Assembly: GCA_947589505.1 (NCBI GenBank)
Contig: CANQCF010000012.1
Location: 1-37,302 of the forward strand
DNA: 37,302 bases
Direction: 5' to 3'
Source of the DNA: an uncultured Acetatifactor sp.
Lineage (GTDB): Bacteria; Bacillota; Clostridia; Lachnospirales; Lachnospiraceae
Positions 1,896 to 25,272 of this stretch are shown piece by piece. The translations under genes were made by a program, and so were the position numbers. The first letter of the stretch is position 1; each line of letters starts with the position of its first letter. The notes under the pieces were generated by a model that was not told the origin of the DNA, made no database searches, and saw nothing but the letters and a program-made list of their open reading frames with translations.

Positions 1896-2249
1896 AAAAA
1901 AAGGACCACCCTCTCAAAAGGGTGAGCCCTCACTCACGTTACCACCTCATGTTCCCGTATAGCTCACGCCATACGGCTCAGCGAGTATCCAACAATACTC
2001 CTGGTCTGTACCGGGACCTCCCGTCAAAGCCTACTCTGAGGATCCTTTGGCCGCCACATATTAACAAAGCCGCCCGCCGGACTTCCCCGTTTGGGTTTGC
2101 TGCTCCGAGATGTATTCCTGCCAGGCTTTTTGCGCCTCTCACCAACCGGCCGCTCTCTGTAAAAAGGGGACTCGCAGTACTCTTTCTCTTCATCGCATTT
2201 CCATATTCTGTTTAAGCCTGTCAATTCCCGCAGGCTTTTATGATACTTT
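1896..2249 (-). promoter_or_regulatory. tyrosine T-box riboswitch leader of tyrS
   Basis: The reverse strand carries the T-box landmarks in order. There is a GATGAAGAGAAAGAGTAC stem I segment, a GGTTGGTGAGAGG element, and a specifier loop GGAATACATC with UAC (Tyr) at 2112-2114. The T-box antiterminator sequence AGGTGGTAACGTG lies at 1935-1947. A terminator follows (CACCCT-TTTGAG-AGGGTG, about 1903-1929) and ends in a run of seven T. Uncharged tRNA-Tyr is expected to stabilise the antiterminator and allow tyrS transcription. The upstream edge is set by the predicted start site and is approximate. Confidence 0.93.
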
Positions 2250-3884: not shown

Positions 3885-4015
3885 CATCTCTTCAACACGC
3901 CTGAATCTTTCGTTTTCGTCTATACAGGTATTTCCAACCTGCTCAAAACTACTGTTTTCGTCTATAACAAAGGTAACTCCTTACCCGACTGAATCCTTTT
4001 TTCCCTCTATACACA
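3885..4015 (-). repeat. degenerate tandem repeat across the end of the DUF2809 gene, 45/42-bp period
   Basis: On the reverse strand the motif TATAGAGGGAAAA / TATAGACGAAAAC recurs with its first base at 4011, 3966 and 3924, so the steps are 45 and 42 bp. The first two units are inside the reading frame and encode YRGKK and YRRKQ at the protein's C-terminus; the third lies after the stop codon. A more distant relative (TATAGAGGGAAAAGG) is at about 3770-3782. Between 3636 and 3884 I see no gene. Confidence 0.6.
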
Positions 4016-4374
4016 AAATATTCCCACCCCGCCAACAGGAGACACCCAACCCCATAGCACACGATATCCTTCCAGTCGAACACGGAGCCGATCAGGACGC
4101 GGAAGAACCGGCTCTCTCCCAGCCCCAGCCGATCTGCCAGGGAAAAGAGCTGAAGAACTTCCACCGCCGTCGCAAACAGAAAGATATACAGGGGAAGGAA
4201 TCTTCCCCTCTCCGGCACCAGGATCCGCACAAAACAATAGAGCAGGATCACCACGAGGATGTCTCCCACATAGGGCCGGATAAAACGGTCATGGACAAAG
4301 AGGGCGATCAAAATTTCAACTCCCAGAAGAATGGCCGCAGCCAGCAGATATCCTGCCCTATACCGATCTCGCAT
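3949..4374 (-). CDS. DUF2809-type membrane protein
   Basis: 141 residues with four predicted membrane helices (about 7-28, 32-52, 58-75, 100-122). The core RPYVGDILVVILLYCFVR and the VFDWKDIVCYGVG segment match the small VanZ-like DUF2809 family, whose function is unknown. I take ATG 4374 because GGGGAG at 4384-4389 is well spaced for it; the track's GTG at 4380 sits directly on that site. The C-terminal tail is basic (YRGKKGFSRVRSYLCYRRKQ) and appears to be built from a tandem repeat that continues past the stop codon. The gene follows the 44-bp repeat array on the same strand as the VWA gene. Confidence 0.78.
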   Translation of the reverse strand: MRDRYRAGYLLAAAILLGVEILIALFVHDRFIRPYVGDILVVILLYCFVRILVPERGRFLPLYIFLFATAVEVLQLFSLADRLGLGESRFFRVLIGSVFDWKDIVCYGVGCLLLAGWEYFVYRGKKGFSRVRSYLCYRRKQ

Positions 4375-4404
4375 TTCCACTTCTCCCCGCCCATTTTTTT
4401 CCTA

Positions 4405-4792
4405 TAAGCTTGGTTCCAGCTGTTCACCTGTTTCCCATAAGCATTTTCACGACCTGGTTCCAGCCATTCACCTGTTTCCCATAAGCATTTTCATGGCTTG
4501 ATTTCAGCCGTTCGCCTGTTTCCCATAAGCATTTCCACGGCTTGGTTCCAGCTATTCACCTGTTTCCCATAAGCATTTTCACGACCTGGTTCCAGCCATT
4601 CACCTGTTTCCCATAAGCATTTTCATGGCTTGATTTCAGCCGTTCGCCTGTTTCCCATAAGCATTTCCACGGCTTGATTACAGCCGTTCGCCCATTTCCC
4701 ATAAGTCTTTCCATGGTTTGGTTTCAGCCGTTCACCTATTCACCATGAGCTTACTCATGGCCTGGTTCAAGCCGTCCACGGTGAGCTTATAC
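4405..4792. repeat. 44-bp tandem repeat array seeded by the end of the VWA gene
   Basis: The string TTTCCCATAA recurs with starts at 4431, 4475, 4519, 4563, 4607, 4651 and 4695, every step exactly 44 bp. A more diverged copy at 4739 is the last codons of the VWA gene. Units 4441-4484 and 4573-4616 are identical, and so are 4485-4528 and 4617-4660. 4409-4528 matches 4541-4660 with one visible difference, so a 132-bp block was duplicated later. The unit length is not a multiple of three and no reading frame crosses the array. Each unit has an internal weak duplication (GGGAAACAGGT / TGGAACCAGGT). Confidence 0.95.
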
Positions 4793-5934
4793 ATGGGGAA
4801 CAGCTCCTTGATCGCCGTCTCCGCCTCTCGCCAGGGCGCTTTTCCCGGCGCCATCTTGGGATTCAGCCAGACCACTTTTTTGTAATGTCTTTTTATCTGT
4901 TTCAGCCACTCCCAGCCCGAGAGCCCCCCGTTGGGACCCCGGTAGTTTCCTGTGTCGGAATAGAGTTCTTCCGGCGCCATGGCGGCATCCCCCACAATGA
5001 TCACCTTGTAGTCGCTGTCCACATTCCGGAACATCCACTCCGTATCCACCCAGTCGCCGTTTTCGCACTCCGGGGTCTTATAGAGTTTACTGTAAATGCA
5101 GTTGTGAAAATAATAGGTCTTCACATCCTTATAGTGATTGGACTTGTGGACCGCCTGGAACAGATCGTTCAGAAGACTGCTGAAGGGGATCATGGTCCCG
5201 CCGGAGTCCATAAGCAGTAATAACTTAACCGCGTTCTTCCGGGGTTTCTTCATGACGATCTGAAGGCAACCCCCGTTGTTGCAGGTCTTGTCCACGGTTC
5301 CGTCGATATCCAGCTCCGTCTCCGGGATGTCCAGCCTGCTGGAAAACTGCCGAAGTTTCCGGAAAGCCAGTTGGAACTGTCGGTTGTCCAGCACTCGGTC
5401 GTCCCGGAAATCCCGGTATTTTCTCGCTCCTACAACAGAGAAAGCGGACTGGTACCCGGTCTGACCTCCCACCCGGACGCCGCCCACATTGCCGCCCATA
5501 TTGCCGAAGGAAGTCTTTCCCATGGTGCCGATCCAGAAACTTCCGCCGTTGTGCTCCTCGTTCTGATCCTTCAGGCGCTGCTTGAAAGTCTCCTCCACCA
5601 TTTCCTTATCCACCTGGATGTCTTCCATCTGGTTCAGATGGGCCCTGGCCTCCTCGTGGGCCAGTTCCAGCATATCCGACTTATCTAACCATCTCAGCAT
5701 TTCCCTGCCCACTTCCGTCTCTCTCTGGGCAGGCTTAAAACATTCCTCGAAGGCCATGTCGTATTTGTCAAAGTCCGTCTCGCTCTTCACCAGGATCATC
5801 CGTGCTACATAATAAAACTGTGTCAGGGAACTGCCGCAGAGCCCTTTGTCCAGAGCCTCCTGCAGTGTCAAGAATTCCCCCAGCGTCACATGCAGTCCTT
5901 TTTCTCTCAAAGTCTCAAAAAATTTCGTGAACAT
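4732..5934 (-). CDS. VWA / CoxE-like protein, partner of MoxR ATPase
   Basis: 400 residues. The N-terminal half (about 1-125) is helical and resembles the CoxE/VWA family found beside MoxR ATPases. Residues 129-160 are a glycine-rich linker (GGSFWIG...GGNVGGVRVGG). A von Willebrand A domain follows, with a strand and metal site at LLLLMDSGGTM (about 238-248) and later strand IIVGDAAMAPEEL. The usual MIDAS DxSxS appears as DSGGT, so the second and third positions differ (D-x-G-x-T). Such pairs are thought to act as chaperones that insert metals or remodel protein complexes. It is the third gene of the moxR-MBL-VWA operon, 31 bp after the hydrolase gene, and its 3' end is the template-like first unit of the 44-bp array. 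Confidence 0.88.
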   Translation of the reverse strand: MFTKFFETLREKGLHVTLGEFLTLQEALDKGLCGSSLTQFYYVARMILVKSETDFDKYDMAFEECFKPAQRETEVGREMLRWLDKSDMLELAHEEARAHLNQMEDIQVDKEMVEETFKQRLKDQNEEHNGGSFWIGTMGKTSFGNMGGNVGGVRVGGQTGYQSAFSVVGARKYRDFRDDRVLDNRQFQLAFRKLRQFSSRLDIPETELDIDGTVDKTCNNGGCLQIVMKKPRKNAVKLLLLMDSGGTMIPFSSLLNDLFQAVHKSNHYKDVKTYYFHNCIYSKLYKTPECENGDWVDTEWMFRNVDSDYKVIIVGDAAMAPEELYSDTGNYRGPNGGLSGWEWLKQIKRHYKKVVWLNPKMAPGKAPWREAETAIKELFPMYKLTVDGLNQAMSKLMVNR

Positions 5935-8293: not shown

Positions 8294-10015
8294 ATGTCAT
8301 ACACATATTTCGCACCTGTCTTTACAGATCATCTTGTATTACAGCGTGAAAAACCGATCCGGCTCTGGGGGACCTGTACTCCCAACGTATCCCTGCGCAT
8401 CGTCTTATGCGGGGGGAACGGTAACCTGCTCTGTGAAGAAGAGGAGCAAATTCTCGCAGAAAGAAACTTCTCTCCTCAGGGTGACCATTTCCGCGCCGAA
8501 CTCCCCCCGCTTCCCGCCGGCGGCCCCTATCGGCTGTTTCTTATGGAAGGCGGCAGGATTCGTCAGGTTTTGCAGGATGTCATGATCGGCGAAGTCTGGC
8601 TGGCCGGCGGGCAGTCAAACATGGAATATGAACTTCAGAACGACGCGGATGCAACGGAACTTTTTTCTGCACCCCGTAATCAAACGGGTTCCCACGGACC
8701 GCTCAAAGGATCCGTTGTCTCCGGTGAAAATGTAGTCTTATCCTCCTGGGTGCCCACCGGCTCAGATGTCCCGGGGACTCTGCCTCAGTCCATCGGCGTA
8801 CGCTTTTACCAGGTTCTCCGAAAGGCTTATTTTGATGAAAGGTTTGAAGCAGAGGAACGAGAAAACCACTGGATGACGGAAGACGACCCGAAGCTGGGCA
8901 CCTGGTCCGCCGTGGCCTATCACTTTGCCAAAGAACTTTCCCTTGCCCTTCACTGCTGCGTCGGCATCATCGGCTGCAACTGGGGCGGAACCAGCGCCGC
9001 TGCTTGGCAGGACCGGGAAAGCCTTCTCTCCCACCCGGAAACCGCCGTTTACTGGCAGGAATACCAGGAGATCTTAGACAGCCTCTCCCCGGAAGGATAC
9101 GAAAAAGCCCGCCGGGAATATGCGCTCTATCAGGAGACCTGGCAGCCTAAGATCAACGAATTTTATGCGGAGAACCCCTCCGGAAGCTGGAGCGACGCCC
9201 TCGCCTATGCCGGTCCCTGTCTCTGGCCCGGTCCCATGGGACCAAAGCATGAGTTCCGGCCCTGCGGCCTTTACGAAACCATGCTGCGGCGCGTGACCCC
9301 CTATTCCCTGAGAGGTTTCCTCTACTATCAGGGAGAGAGCGACGATCACCGCCCGGAGGCCTATTACACACTGTTAAAGTCCATGGTCCGGGTATGGCGC
9401 CGGGATTTTGAGGACGAGAGCCTTTCTTTCCTGAATGTCCAGCTTCCTATGCATCAATACGAAAGCGATCCGCCCTCAGACTCCTGGGCGAAGATCCGGG
9501 AAGCGCAGCTTCGTCTCAGCAGAGAGGATCCCCTCTCCGGCCTTGCCGTTGCCATTGACCTGGGAGAATACAATAATATCCATCCCCTGCACAAAAAAGA
9601 AGTGGGCCACAGACTCTTTCTGCAGTCCATGACCCATGTCTATCACAAATTGTCCCCAGAGGACGCCTGCGGTCCGATGTTTCGCCGTGCGGTCTGCTTT
9701 AAAGAGGATGCCTCTATCCGGCTGGAATTCGACTTTGCGGACGCAGGCTTTGACCGGGAGCGCTATCTCGCCGTCCTCAGCCGTGCCCAGGGCAGCGGCA
9801 GTTCTTTTCTAAAGGGTTTTGAGATCGCGGGGCCTGATGAAATCTACCGCTGCGCTGAAGCGGATTTCGAATCCGGAGATCAGACCATTTCCCTGCGGAT
9901 CCCCGGAGAAATCGCCCAGCCTGCTTTCGTCCGCTATCTCTGGATCAATTACAGCCTGGTGCCCCTCTTTGACCGAAGAGGCCTGCCCGCAGCGCCTTTC
10001 CGCACCGCCCTGTGA
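8294..10015 (+). CDS. sialate O-acetylesterase (SASA family)
   Basis: 573 residues. The nucleophile motif GQSNM is at about 106-110 (Ser108), preceded by the small beta-domain typical of this family (residues 1-100). The later blocks GCNWGGTSAAAW, YYQGESDD and DLGEYNNIHPLHKKEVG follow in the normal order. The last one carries the Asp/His expected of SGNH-type hydrolases. The family removes O-acetyl groups from sialic acids or from plant-type acetylated glycans. No signal peptide is visible, so it probably acts inside the cell after uptake. AGGAGGG lies seven bases before ATG 8294. It is one of only two plus-strand genes in the window, stands alone, and its last codons are the first copy of a 43-bp tandem duplication. 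Confidence 0.92.
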   Translation: MSYTYFAPVFTDHLVLQREKPIRLWGTCTPNVSLRIVLCGGNGNLLCEEEEQILAERNFSPQGDHFRAELPPLPAGGPYRLFLMEGGRIRQVLQDVMIGEVWLAGGQSNMEYELQNDADATELFSAPRNQTGSHGPLKGSVVSGENVVLSSWVPTGSDVPGTLPQSIGVRFYQVLRKAYFDERFEAEERENHWMTEDDPKLGTWSAVAYHFAKELSLALHCCVGIIGCNWGGTSAAAWQDRESLLSHPETAVYWQEYQEILDSLSPEGYEKARREYALYQETWQPKINEFYAENPSGSWSDALAYAGPCLWPGPMGPKHEFRPCGLYETMLRRVTPYSLRGFLYYQGESDDHRPEAYYTLLKSMVRVWRRDFEDESLSFLNVQLPMHQYESDPPSDSWAKIREAQLRLSREDPLSGLAVAIDLGEYNNIHPLHKKEVGHRLFLQSMTHVYHKLSPEDACGPMFRRAVCFKEDASIRLEFDFADAGFDRERYLAVLSRAQGSGSSFLKGFEIAGPDEIYRCAEADFESGDQTISLRIPGEIAQPAFVRYLWINYSLVPLFDRRGLPAAPFRTAL

Positions 10016-10056
10016 CCGAAGGTCTGCCCGCGGCGCTCTTTCGCGCATCGCCCTGT
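9971..10056. repeat. 43-bp tandem duplication of the esterase gene tail
   Basis: 9971-10013 (end of the esterase frame, from GACCGAAGAGG to CGCCCTGT) is repeated at 10014-10056 (from GACCGAAGGTC to CGCCCTGT) with scattered substitutions and small shifts. The stop codon falls at the junction. The step is 43 bp, which is not a multiple of three. Confidence 0.85.
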
Positions 10057-16460: not shown

Positions 16461-16506
16461 TCCTTCCTCCAAAGCAGTTTTATGGGGGCAGCCCACGCCT
16501 CCCTTG

Positions 16507-16876
16507 CAACAGTTCAGCCCACGCCTTTTATTCGCAAAGCCGCGCTGGCGCGCTTCCCGGCGCTTCGCGCCTTCCTTTGCTCATAAGGCGGCGTTTTGAC
16601 TCCCTGGCAACAGTTCAGCCCACGCCTTTTATTCGCAAAGCCGCGCTGGCGCGCTTTTCCGGCGCTTCGCGCCTTCCTTTGCTCATAAGGCGGCGTTTTG
16701 ACTCCCTTGCAACAGTTCAGCCCACGCCTTTTATTCGCAAAGCCGCGCTGACGCGCTTTTCCGGCGCTTCGCGCCTTCCTTTGCTCATAAGGCGGCGTTC
16801 CCTCAGCCGTCGGTCCGACGAAAGATTCCGTGCAAGCACGATCTTTCGTCGATACCGTCGGCTGGCTGAACTGTTG
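16507..16876. mobile_element. composite repeat element with 13-bp terminal inverted repeats
   Basis: The left end CAACAGTTCAGCC (16507-16519) is the exact reverse complement of GGCTGAACTGTTG (16864-16876) at the right end. Between them are three near-identical units of about 101-102 bp starting at 16507, 16608 and 16710. Each contains GGCGCTTCGCGCC and a GCGCGCT-type hairpin. A 61-bp palindrome closes the right side. The minus-strand frame across it (repeating PPYEQRKARSAGKARQRGF) has no gene-like features and is best read as non-coding. No transposase is present and I see no target-site duplication. A MITE-like or REP-like element is the best description. Confidence 0.7.
16804..16864. repeat. 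61-bp three-tier palindrome inside the composite element
   Basis: Outer arms CAGCCGTCGGT / ACCGTCGGCTG (one T-T mismatch), middle arms CGACGAAAGAT / ATCTTTCGTCG, inner arms CGTGC / GCACG around AA. It lies 38 bp before the prs -35 box and would form a very stable hairpin in either transcript. Confidence 0.85.
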
Positions 16877-23418: not shown

Positions 23419-23485
23419 CCCGTATGTCCTCCCCCGCTTTTCGGCCGCCCTTGTCCAGGGATTCCTGCCTTACCCCGCATTTCTC

Positions 23486-23603
23486 TTACGGTCAGTACGC
23501 AAATCTTTACAGCCATTCCGAATTTTTCTTACAGTCAGTACACGCATTTTTACTGTCATCTCGGATTTCTTTTACAGCCAGTCCTCGCCGCTGGGCTGTC
23601 AGG
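23486..23603. repeat. 43-bp tandem repeat made of alternating 21/22-bp half-units
   Basis: The plus-strand core TTAC(A/G/T)G(T/C)CA begins at 23486, 23507, 23529, 23550 and 23572, steps of 21, 22, 21 and 22 bp. A degenerate sixth unit at about 23593 (GGCTGTCAGG) contains the stop codon of the FliK-like gene. On the transcribed strand the core reads TGRCYGTAA. The array fills most of the gap between the FliK-like and FlhB-like genes. Confidence 0.85.
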
Positions 23604-25272
23604 TCCTCACGTCAAACCCTCGGGTCTGTATGAGCAGTCCGGGGGACGTCTGGGCGAGAACCGGTCCGATGCCGGAGGTTTCCTGCTCTTCTCCCGGCTT
23701 TTTCACAGTTGTCTGAACCGTCATGGAATATCCTCTCTTCTCCAGCCGCGAGGTCAGAAGATCCATGTGCGCTTCCAGGAAATCCAGCATCTCATCGTCC
23801 CGGACATAAAACTTCGTGCTCACTTTCTCCATCTGCATGCTCACATAGACATCCACCGGCCCCAGATGTTCCATATCCAGGTGCAGCAGAGCCGTAACAG
23901 GACCGTCGCCGGAAGCCAGGTTTTTCTTGTTCGTATACACATAGAGATCTCCCTGGGCTCTGCCCTCCTGAAACCTCAGGGGAAGCTGCACATAGGCATA
24001 CATGTGATTGATCTGATTCAGGAAATCCACATTCTGGTTCAGATTGGCAAGCCCCTGAAAAGCCTGGGTCTGACTCTGCCCCGCGCTGTCCAGCGCCTGC
24101 ATCATTCCCTTAAACTGTTTCGTCAGGCGCCCATAGAGATTTTCCACTTCCCTGGGATCCGCAACCTGCTCCGGCGCAATGGTCCATTGCTTTTGAAACT
24201 GATCCGACAAAAGCTGTCTTACCTCCGGCAGACTCATCAGCGCATCCGTAAGATTCCTGTCCTTCGCCTCAAGACCCTGCCGGAGCCAGGCGTCCACAAG
24301 GTTCATTTCCTCCTGAGGAGAAAACTGACCACTCTGCAATATCTTTGAAAATGCGTCTATATATTGCTCCCTGACGGCGGATCCGGCAGGTTCCGTTCCG
24401 ACCGTTTTCTCTGTTTGCCCGCCTTCGGATGCGGCCTCCAAAACGCTCTCCACATCCGCATAATTGGCCGGAACTGCCGGCTCTCCTGTACGGCCGGGAT
24501 TCCCCTCGACATCAGGCCCCGCCTCTAAGACATTGCCGACACCCACGCCGGCGTTCCCGACGCCATCTTCTTCCAACAGCGCCGCCAGTTCCAGGTACAA
24601 GGCTGCAGCCCCCTGGGAATCTCCCCTCCCCTGCATCTGCGAGAGGACGTCCAGAAGGGCTTTTGAAACATCCGCCAACCCTGAGGAGAGCTGATGTGTC
24701 AGGTTTTTGTAAGATTCCAGCTGTGTCAGATTTTCTTCCGTCACCGGCAGTCCCAGCCTGTGCAGGTCTACCAGATCGGAGATCTGGCCGGTCGACTGAT
24801 GGATCATCTCCCGATACATCTGCTGCAGGCTCTCCCGGTCGATGGAAAGGCCCGCCTGCATCATCAGTTTCGTCATCTCTCCCGTAGCGGAATTCACAGG
24901 AATCTCCGCCATTTCCAGGGCTTTTGAAACAGGGCCTTCCACGGAGAGATTTGCCTGAAGCGGGGTGAGCAGCAGCGTTCTGCCGTTGCTCCGCACCTGA
25001 AAATTCATCATCTTTCCCAGTTCCAGCGAAAAATCGCGGTCTAACTTTGCATCGATGAGAAGATCATTCAACAGTTTGATCTGAACCTCACCATTTTCCG
25101 AAGAAACCAGCTCTCCGCGCACAACCTGCCCAGGCGTCAGTTCGCTCATCCGGGAACCGCTCCCCGCCGTCTGGCCAGCCGCCGCAGACTGCCCCTGAAC
25201 GGCCTGATTCTGTGCCGCCTGATTTGGATCCGCTATATGATTATTCCCCGCAAAAAAATCCGTTAATCTCAT
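23599..25272 (-). CDS. FliK-like protein (flagellar hook-length control C-terminal domain)
   Basis: 557 residues. The N-terminus is rich in Gln and Ala (AAQNQAVQGQSAAAGQ). The middle is mostly helical and acidic. Residues about 430-530 resemble the FliK C-terminal domain (YVQLPLRFQEGRAQGDLYVYTNK, then LLHLDMEHLGPVDVYVSM). It corresponds to B. subtilis ylqG in position, between rnhB and the FlhB-like gene. With no flagellar genes in the window, the pair may be a repurposed length-control/switch module. ATG 25272 has GGGG upstream. The end of the gene runs into the 21/22-bp repeat. Confidence 0.85.
   Translation of the reverse strand: MRLTDFFAGNNHIADPNQAAQNQAVQGQSAAAGQTAGSGSRMSELTPGQVVRGELVSSENGEVQIKLLNDLLIDAKLDRDFSLELGKMMNFQVRSNGRTLLLTPLQANLSVEGPVSKALEMAEIPVNSATGEMTKLMMQAGLSIDRESLQQMYREMIHQSTGQISDLVDLHRLGLPVTEENLTQLESYKNLTHQLSSGLADVSKALLDVLSQMQGRGDSQGAAALYLELAALLEEDGVGNAGVGVGNVLEAGPDVEGNPGRTGEPAVPANYADVESVLEAASEGGQTEKTVGTEPAGSAVREQYIDAFSKILQSGQFSPQEEMNLVDAWLRQGLEAKDRNLTDALMSLPEVRQLLSDQFQKQWTIAPEQVADPREVENLYGRLTKQFKGMMQALDSAGQSQTQAFQGLANLNQNVDFLNQINHMYAYVQLPLRFQEGRAQGDLYVYTNKKNLASGDGPVTALLHLDMEHLGPVDVYVSMQMEKVSTKFYVRDDEMLDFLEAHMDLLTSRLEKRGYSMTVQTTVKKPGEEQETSGIGPVLAQTSPGLLIQTRGFDVRT

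What the first reader, a model, noticed from the sequence alone, without database searches (positions are those of the whole stretch)
4405..4792. Eight-unit 44-bp array grown from the last codons of the VWA gene, with a 132-bp higher-order repeat
The unit phase is exact (TTTCCCATAA every 44 bp from 4431 to 4695), and the next phase position, 4739, is the coding end of the gene. Divergence rises towards the gene, while the distal units contain an identical 88-bp B-C block twice, so growth occurred in at least two stages. The array ends right before the ribosome binding site of the DUF2809 gene and could affect its expression.
Basis: seen in the sequence. Interest (0 to 1): 0.65.

Follow-up and report, generated by a model that had tools for sequence, protein, structure and literature searches.

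The report
Gene-end minisatellite in a gut bacterium
A 44-base stretch covering the last codons and stop of one gene was copied head to tail about eight times; it is an ordinary, non-coding minisatellite, but this species' genome holds an unusual number of such unrelated 39-45 base arrays, often starting at gene ends.

Summary
The array is real. Seven full 44-bp units plus a partial eighth run in exact phase from the last 44 bp of a VWA (CoxE-like) gene to the ribosome-binding site of a DUF2809 gene (4408-4776). Its higher-order period is 132 bp, with a 122-bp exact repeat. The unit consensus matches the gene end better than any other position in 1.18 Mb of this genome, and the C-terminal peptide is conserved across the genus, so the gene seeded the array. 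The array has no reading frame, Rfam hit, promoter, terminator or shared unit fold, and it occurs nowhere else in the genome or in 137 congeners. The best reading is a local minisatellite made by tandem duplication and slippage. It survives because duplications across a stop codon leave the protein intact.

In 1.18 Mb of this Acetatifactor-like MAG I found 27 tandem arrays with period 39-45 bp, against 1 in 1.12 Mb of relatives. Their sequences are nearly all unrelated. Of 34 arrays at 36-46 bp, 14 lie over or within 40 bp of a stop codon (4 expected). So the window array is one case of a lineage-specific burst. The cause of that burst, and any effect on DUF2809, are not shown.

The parts
4732..5934 (-). 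VWA (CoxE-like) domain gene, 400 aa; its 3' end seeded the array
   Evidence: ORF; PF05762 VWA_CoxE E 9.6e-5, below the curated cut-off; orthologues at 84-96% identity in 30 genus genomes
4733..4776 (-). coding unit (unit 0): DGLNQAMSKLMVNR plus first two bases of the stop
   Evidence: in exact 44-bp phase with the array; best match of the unit consensus outside the array, 30/44
4689..4732 (-). noncoding unit 1, the most diverged (8-12 mismatches to the others)
4645..4688 (-). unit 2
4601..4644 (-). unit 3, identical to unit 6
4557..4600 (-). unit 4, identical to unit 7
4513..4556 (-). unit 5
4469..4512 (-). unit 6, identical to unit 3
4425..4468 (-). unit 7, identical to unit 4
4392..4424 (-). 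unit 8: 17 clear bases (4424-4408), then a remnant that reads as a unit with an 11-bp deletion, ending at the DUF2809 Shine-Dalgarno
   Evidence: the deletion reading is by eye
4555..4676 (.). first copy of the 122-bp exact repeat (132-bp higher-order period)
4423..4544 (.). second copy of the 122-bp exact repeat
3949..4374 (-). DUF2809 gene downstream of the array; ATG 4374-4372, Shine-Dalgarno GGGGAG 4388-4383
   Evidence: PF10990 E 2.2e-28; start and Shine-Dalgarno read from sequence

Best explanation
A locally born, noncoding minisatellite. A 44-bp stretch covering the last codons and stop of the VWA gene was tandemly duplicated. Later slippage or unequal exchange expanded it, last by a 132-bp (three-unit) step, until it filled the whole VWA-DUF2809 spacer. 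The first copy keeps the VWA reading frame and stop, so the extra units are harmless to the protein and drift freely. It is one product of a lineage-specific tendency in this species to form unrelated tandem arrays of about 39-45 bp, which survive best at gene ends and in spacers. Shown: phase, origin, staged growth, lack of coding, single locus, and the genome-wide excess. Inferred: slippage or unequal exchange as the process, and selective neutrality. Unknown: what sets the ~42-bp length.
For: Exact 44/132-bp periodicity without indels. The unit consensus is closest to the gene end in the own-genome sample. The C-terminus is conserved in the genus, but only this species has the array among the ~110 orthologous loci compared. 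The array is absent from 137 other genus genomes and from viral, phage and plasmid collections at the sensitivities used. Stops lie in all three - strand frames, and the 14 differences from the gene fall evenly over codon positions (4/4/6), as expected of noncoding drift. Other species duplicated the same gene end independently with other unit lengths: 68 bp x2 (L036), 21 bp x2 (L013/L073), 50 bp (L080). Genome-wide: 27 arrays of period 39-45 in 1.18 Mb own against 1 in 1.12 Mb of relatives (p 2.6e-7); 14 of 34 (period 36-46) over or within 40 bp of stops against 4.0+-1.8 by chance; 11 of 13 inside ORFs have periods divisible by three, against 9 of 21 outside. Only one pair of the 34 is related to each other, and only those two have copies elsewhere in the sample.
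Against: Strain-level copy-number variation could not be examined, so ongoing instability is not shown. The lack of indels over ~370 bp and the purine-rich sense strand could hint at constraint. Slippage alone does not explain the narrow 39-45 bp preference. G162, a fairly close species, shows arrays of 42, 46 and 50 bp in only 80 kb, so the trait may be shared by a small clade.
Confidence: 0.78

Rival explanations
1. Regulatory VNTR: the array is the 5' leader of DUF2809, or a long spacer in a VWA-DUF2809 operon, and unit number tunes DUF2809 expression through RNA structure, spacing, Rho access or protein binding.
For: The array fills the whole spacer and ends at the DUF2809 Shine-Dalgarno. 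No terminator was found in the array, so read-through from VWA is plausible. A precedent exists: tandem-repeat length upstream of fpg1 in M. tuberculosis correlates with its expression (PMC2734929). The array folds somewhat better than shuffles (z -2.4).
Against: Units do not share a fold, and no single unit is strongly folded (z -0.1 to -2.0). Promoter-like and terminator-like hits are at chance level. No other species has the array, and DUF2809 is not beside VWA in the other loci compared. Any long self-similar sequence folds a little better than its shuffles.
Confidence: 0.12
2. Recombination scar or attachment-site array: the gene's 3' end is a target for incoming DNA, and the repeated gene ends are traces of successive insertions.
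For: The region after VWA is variable across species; tyrS usually follows, but here DUF2809 and a serine hydrolase intervene. In L080 the second copy of the gene end looks like the end found in other species.
Against: Units abut with no intervening DNA and no distal copy of the gene end exists in the window. No integrase family appeared among the genes tested nearby, though not every gene was tested. Array units derive from one another, not from several lineages' gene ends.
Confidence: 0.06
3. Assembly artefact: short-read assembly duplicated or misjoined units.
For: The source is a 220-contig MAG, and a 122-bp exact repeat at 132-bp spacing is hard for short reads.
Against: Most units differ from each other by 4-12 bases, which an assembler does not invent. 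The array joins two intact genes.
Confidence: 0.04

Closest known systems
Bacterial minisatellites / VNTR loci (general class, as in PMC2884548)
   Same: Head-to-tail units of tens of bp, imperfect copies, higher-order periods, largely at spacers and gene ends
   Different: Polymorphism between strains not seen because one genome per species is held; the genome-wide bias to 39-45 bp is unusual among its relatives
M. tuberculosis ETR-F/VNTR3239 upstream of fpg1 (PMC2734929)
   Same: Tandem repeats fill the spacer between two genes (rnc and fpg1); complex unit structure
   Different: An expression link was measured there, none here; units are 55 and 79 bp and not stated to come from a gene end
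Tandem repeats of archaeal Borg elements (PMC9879509)
   Same: Pervasive, independently arisen arrays; nearly all unique sequences; first unit often within a gene end; ORF arrays in multiples of three; composition bias; rare in the comparison genomes
   Different: Borg repeats are perfect and A-rich on giant linear elements; these are imperfect, on a bacterial chromosome, purine-rich at stops, with periods near 42
Mycobacterial interspersed repetitive units (MIRU)
   Same: 40-100 bp repeat units, often in tandem (PMC2734929)
   Different: MIRUs are one class of repeats scattered over 41 locations; this unit is at a single site

Membership tests
Minisatellite | tandem head-to-tail units of about 10-100 bp | tested here: met
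   period 44, 8.5 copies
Minisatellite | formed locally by duplication, not by insertion of a dispersed element | tested here: met
   derived from the adjacent gene end; single locus
VNTR | unit number varies between strains | not testable with these tools
   one genome per species; no strain set or reads held
MIRU-like or REP/PU dispersed repeat | same unit at many unrelated sites | tested here: not met
Borg-type tandem repeats | error-free repeat units | tested here: not met
   83% matches
Borg-type tandem repeats | many independent arrays per genome, mostly frame-preserving inside ORFs, some starting in gene ends | tested here: met
CRISPR array | conserved repeat alternating with unrelated spacers | tested here: not met
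   the whole 44 bp is repeated; no spacer part
Structured RNA family | match to a curated model, or a shared fold of units | tested here: not met
   Rfam finds only a T-box elsewhere; unit folds differ

The most novel reading that the evidence does not exclude
This lineage has acquired a specific duplication process, linked to transcription or replication, that makes ~42-bp (about four helical turns) tandem copies preferentially at gene 3' ends with purine-rich transcripts, for example through RNA-DNA hybrids at transcript ends. The VWA array would be one of its larger products.
Probability: 0.18. Interest if true: 0.65.

Novelty: new member of a known kind. Interest (0 to 1): 0.4.

Why it matters
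By itself the array is an ordinary minisatellite with a clear origin: it shows how a gene end including its stop codon can seed a spacer. It matters more as a pointer to a lineage-specific burst of ~42-bp arrays in a gut Lachnospiraceae chromosome. That burst gives a natural comparison with array-poor congeners for asking what sets the length and place of tandem duplications in bacteria.

Tried and rejected
Loss of the PolA 5'-3' exonuclease, recalled from memory as a possible cause of duplications: the domain is intact in this genome. Dispersed repeat or mobile element: no other copies. Coding repeat: stops in all three - strand frames and even codon-position change. Conserved unit RNA fold: none. 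Shared sequence among the ~42-bp arrays: no cross-matches except one paralogous pair. DUF2809-side origin: DUF2809 loci of relatives carry no such sequence. GC content as cause: GC-matched relatives still show only one 39-45 bp array in 420 kb. Papers: no report on tandem repeats in Acetatifactor was found in the library.

Full report
OBSERVATION. The array is present as described. TRF reports 4408-4779 at period 44 (8.5 copies, 83% matches, no indels) and 4408-4737 at period 132 (2.5 copies, 91%). Read on the - strand, the strand of both neighbouring genes, it consists of the last 44 bp of the VWA gene before the final base of its stop (unit 0, 4776-4733), seven full units (4732-4425) and 17 clear bases of an eighth. 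The sequence between 4407 and the DUF2809 Shine-Dalgarno (GGGGAG, 4388-4383) looks like a unit with an 11-bp deletion, so the array fills the whole spacer. Mismatches grow towards the gene: 0-7 among units 2-7, 8-12 for unit 1, 12-15 for the coding unit. Simulated sequence gives no such array.

ORIGIN. Among 2.35 million 44-mers from 1.18 Mb of this genome, both strands, the best match to the unit consensus outside the array is the gene end at exact phase, 30/44, with the next best at 27. The encoded C-terminus (DGLNQAMxKLMxN[KR]) is conserved in the orthologues of the genus, so the gene is the source and the array the copy. Differences from the gene fall evenly over codon positions (4, 4, 6), and stops occur in all three - strand frames, so the array is not coding. 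Among the ~110 orthologous loci compared, no other species carries it. Three others show independent small duplications of the same gene end with other lengths: 68 bp in L036, 21 bp in L013/L073, about 50 bp in L080; the last may be a recombination scar, because its second copy resembles the gene end of other species. A duplication that spans a stop codon leaves the upstream protein intact, a simple reason why gene ends keep such copies (inference).

FUNCTION. Nothing found favours a function. Rfam has no match over the array (its only hit in the window is a T-box at 1915-2202, upstream of tyrS). Promoter-like and terminator-like matches are at chance. Unit folds differ between units. The whole array folds slightly better than shuffles (z -2.4), which self-similarity can explain. 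In relatives the order is usually MoxR - about 1 kb - VWA - tyrS; in the window DUF2809 and a serine hydrolase lie between VWA and tyrS, and this is seen in no other locus compared. DUF2809 occurs in 24 of 138 genus genomes. An effect on DUF2809 expression remains possible, with the M. tuberculosis fpg1 repeats as precedent (PMC2734929), but is untested.

GENOME-WIDE CONTEXT. I sampled 1.18 Mb of the same genome (L112-L131, L153-L172, L197-L216 and the window) and 1.12 Mb from about 16 congeners. TRF arrays of period 39-45: 27 against 1 (binomial p 2.6e-7). Shorter arrays (18-35) do not differ significantly (44 against 32, p 0.25). Of the 34 arrays of period 36-46, 14 lie over or within 40 bp of the stop of an ORF of at least 150 aa (random placement 4.0 +- 1.8, maximum 11 in 2000 trials); 13 lie inside ORFs against 25.8 expected, 11 of those with periods divisible by three, against 9 of 21 outside. 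Only one pair of the 34 is related to each other, and only those two have copies elsewhere in the sample, so nearly all arose on the spot. Arrays at stops are purine-rich on the sense strand (63%, against about 54-55% in coding and post-stop DNA; T 15% against 22-24%). A further 0.37 Mb from close species gave two arrays of 39-45 bp; G162 had arrays of 42, 46 and 50 bp in 80 kb and may share the trait. Gene models were simple longest-ORF calls, so single placements may be wrong; the totals should be robust to a few errors. GC is slightly higher in this genome, but GC-matched relatives do not show the excess. The 39-45 bp bin was chosen after seeing the data, so its p-value is somewhat optimistic.

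MECHANISM. Most likely a tandem duplication at the gene end, then slippage or unequal exchange, with a last 132-bp step. The higher-order period appears in at least two other arrays of this genome (41/82/123 bp in L113, 45/89 bp in L124). The process and what sets ~42 bp are not shown. Absence of the PolA flap exonuclease is excluded as cause.

COMPARISON. It works like and belongs to minisatellites; variability between strains could not be tested. It is not a MIRU-, REP- or CRISPR-type element. The genome-wide pattern resembles the Borg tandem repeats (PMC9879509): independent arrays, first units in gene ends, frame-keeping in ORFs and a composition bias, but with imperfect units and on a bacterial chromosome.

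VERDICT. Observation confirmed; origin and staged growth supported; regulatory role unsupported. The array is ordinary in kind; the surrounding burst of ~42-bp arrays is the part worth following.

Noticed in passing
window 16499-16799; L112 9186, L118 2120, L121 13562, L124 1679, L125 6101: A dispersed, hairpin-rich repeat of about 100 bp (core GCAAAGRTAGTCGCGAAGCGACGGAGAGCGCGTCAGCGCGGCTTTGCGAAT...GCTGAACTG), single or in tandem arrays of up to 6: 52 matches at 25 sites in 1.18 Mb of this genome, only 2 in 1.49 Mb of relatives, both in G034, the closest by VWA gene identity.
   Followed up: partly
window 9970-10056 and 23474-23582: Two further 43-bp arrays at gene ends, one spanning the stop of the 8294-10015 ORF and one 17 bp after the stop of the 23599-25272 ORF, unrelated in sequence to the 44-bp array.
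   Followed up: yes
window 3893-3966: Degenerate 42-bp duplication across the DUF2809 stop (72% over 32 bp), the same style as the VWA gene-end array.
   Followed up: partly
L080 4162-4250; compare L071, L077, L037: The VWA gene ends in ...KLMSAR* and is followed by a second gene end ...KLMMNKA*, each form typical of different species; probably a scar of horizontal exchange at the gene's 3' end.
   Followed up: no
window 1915-2202 (-): T-box leader (Rfam RF00230, 105 bits) upstream of tyrS (483-1706).
   Followed up: no
L069 4900-5129; L174 15837-19132; L253 3441-5969: Long repeat arrays in relatives (18/36-bp periods in L069; 78-bp arrays in L174 and L253 that look like surface-protein repeats), all with periods divisible by three.
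   Followed up: no
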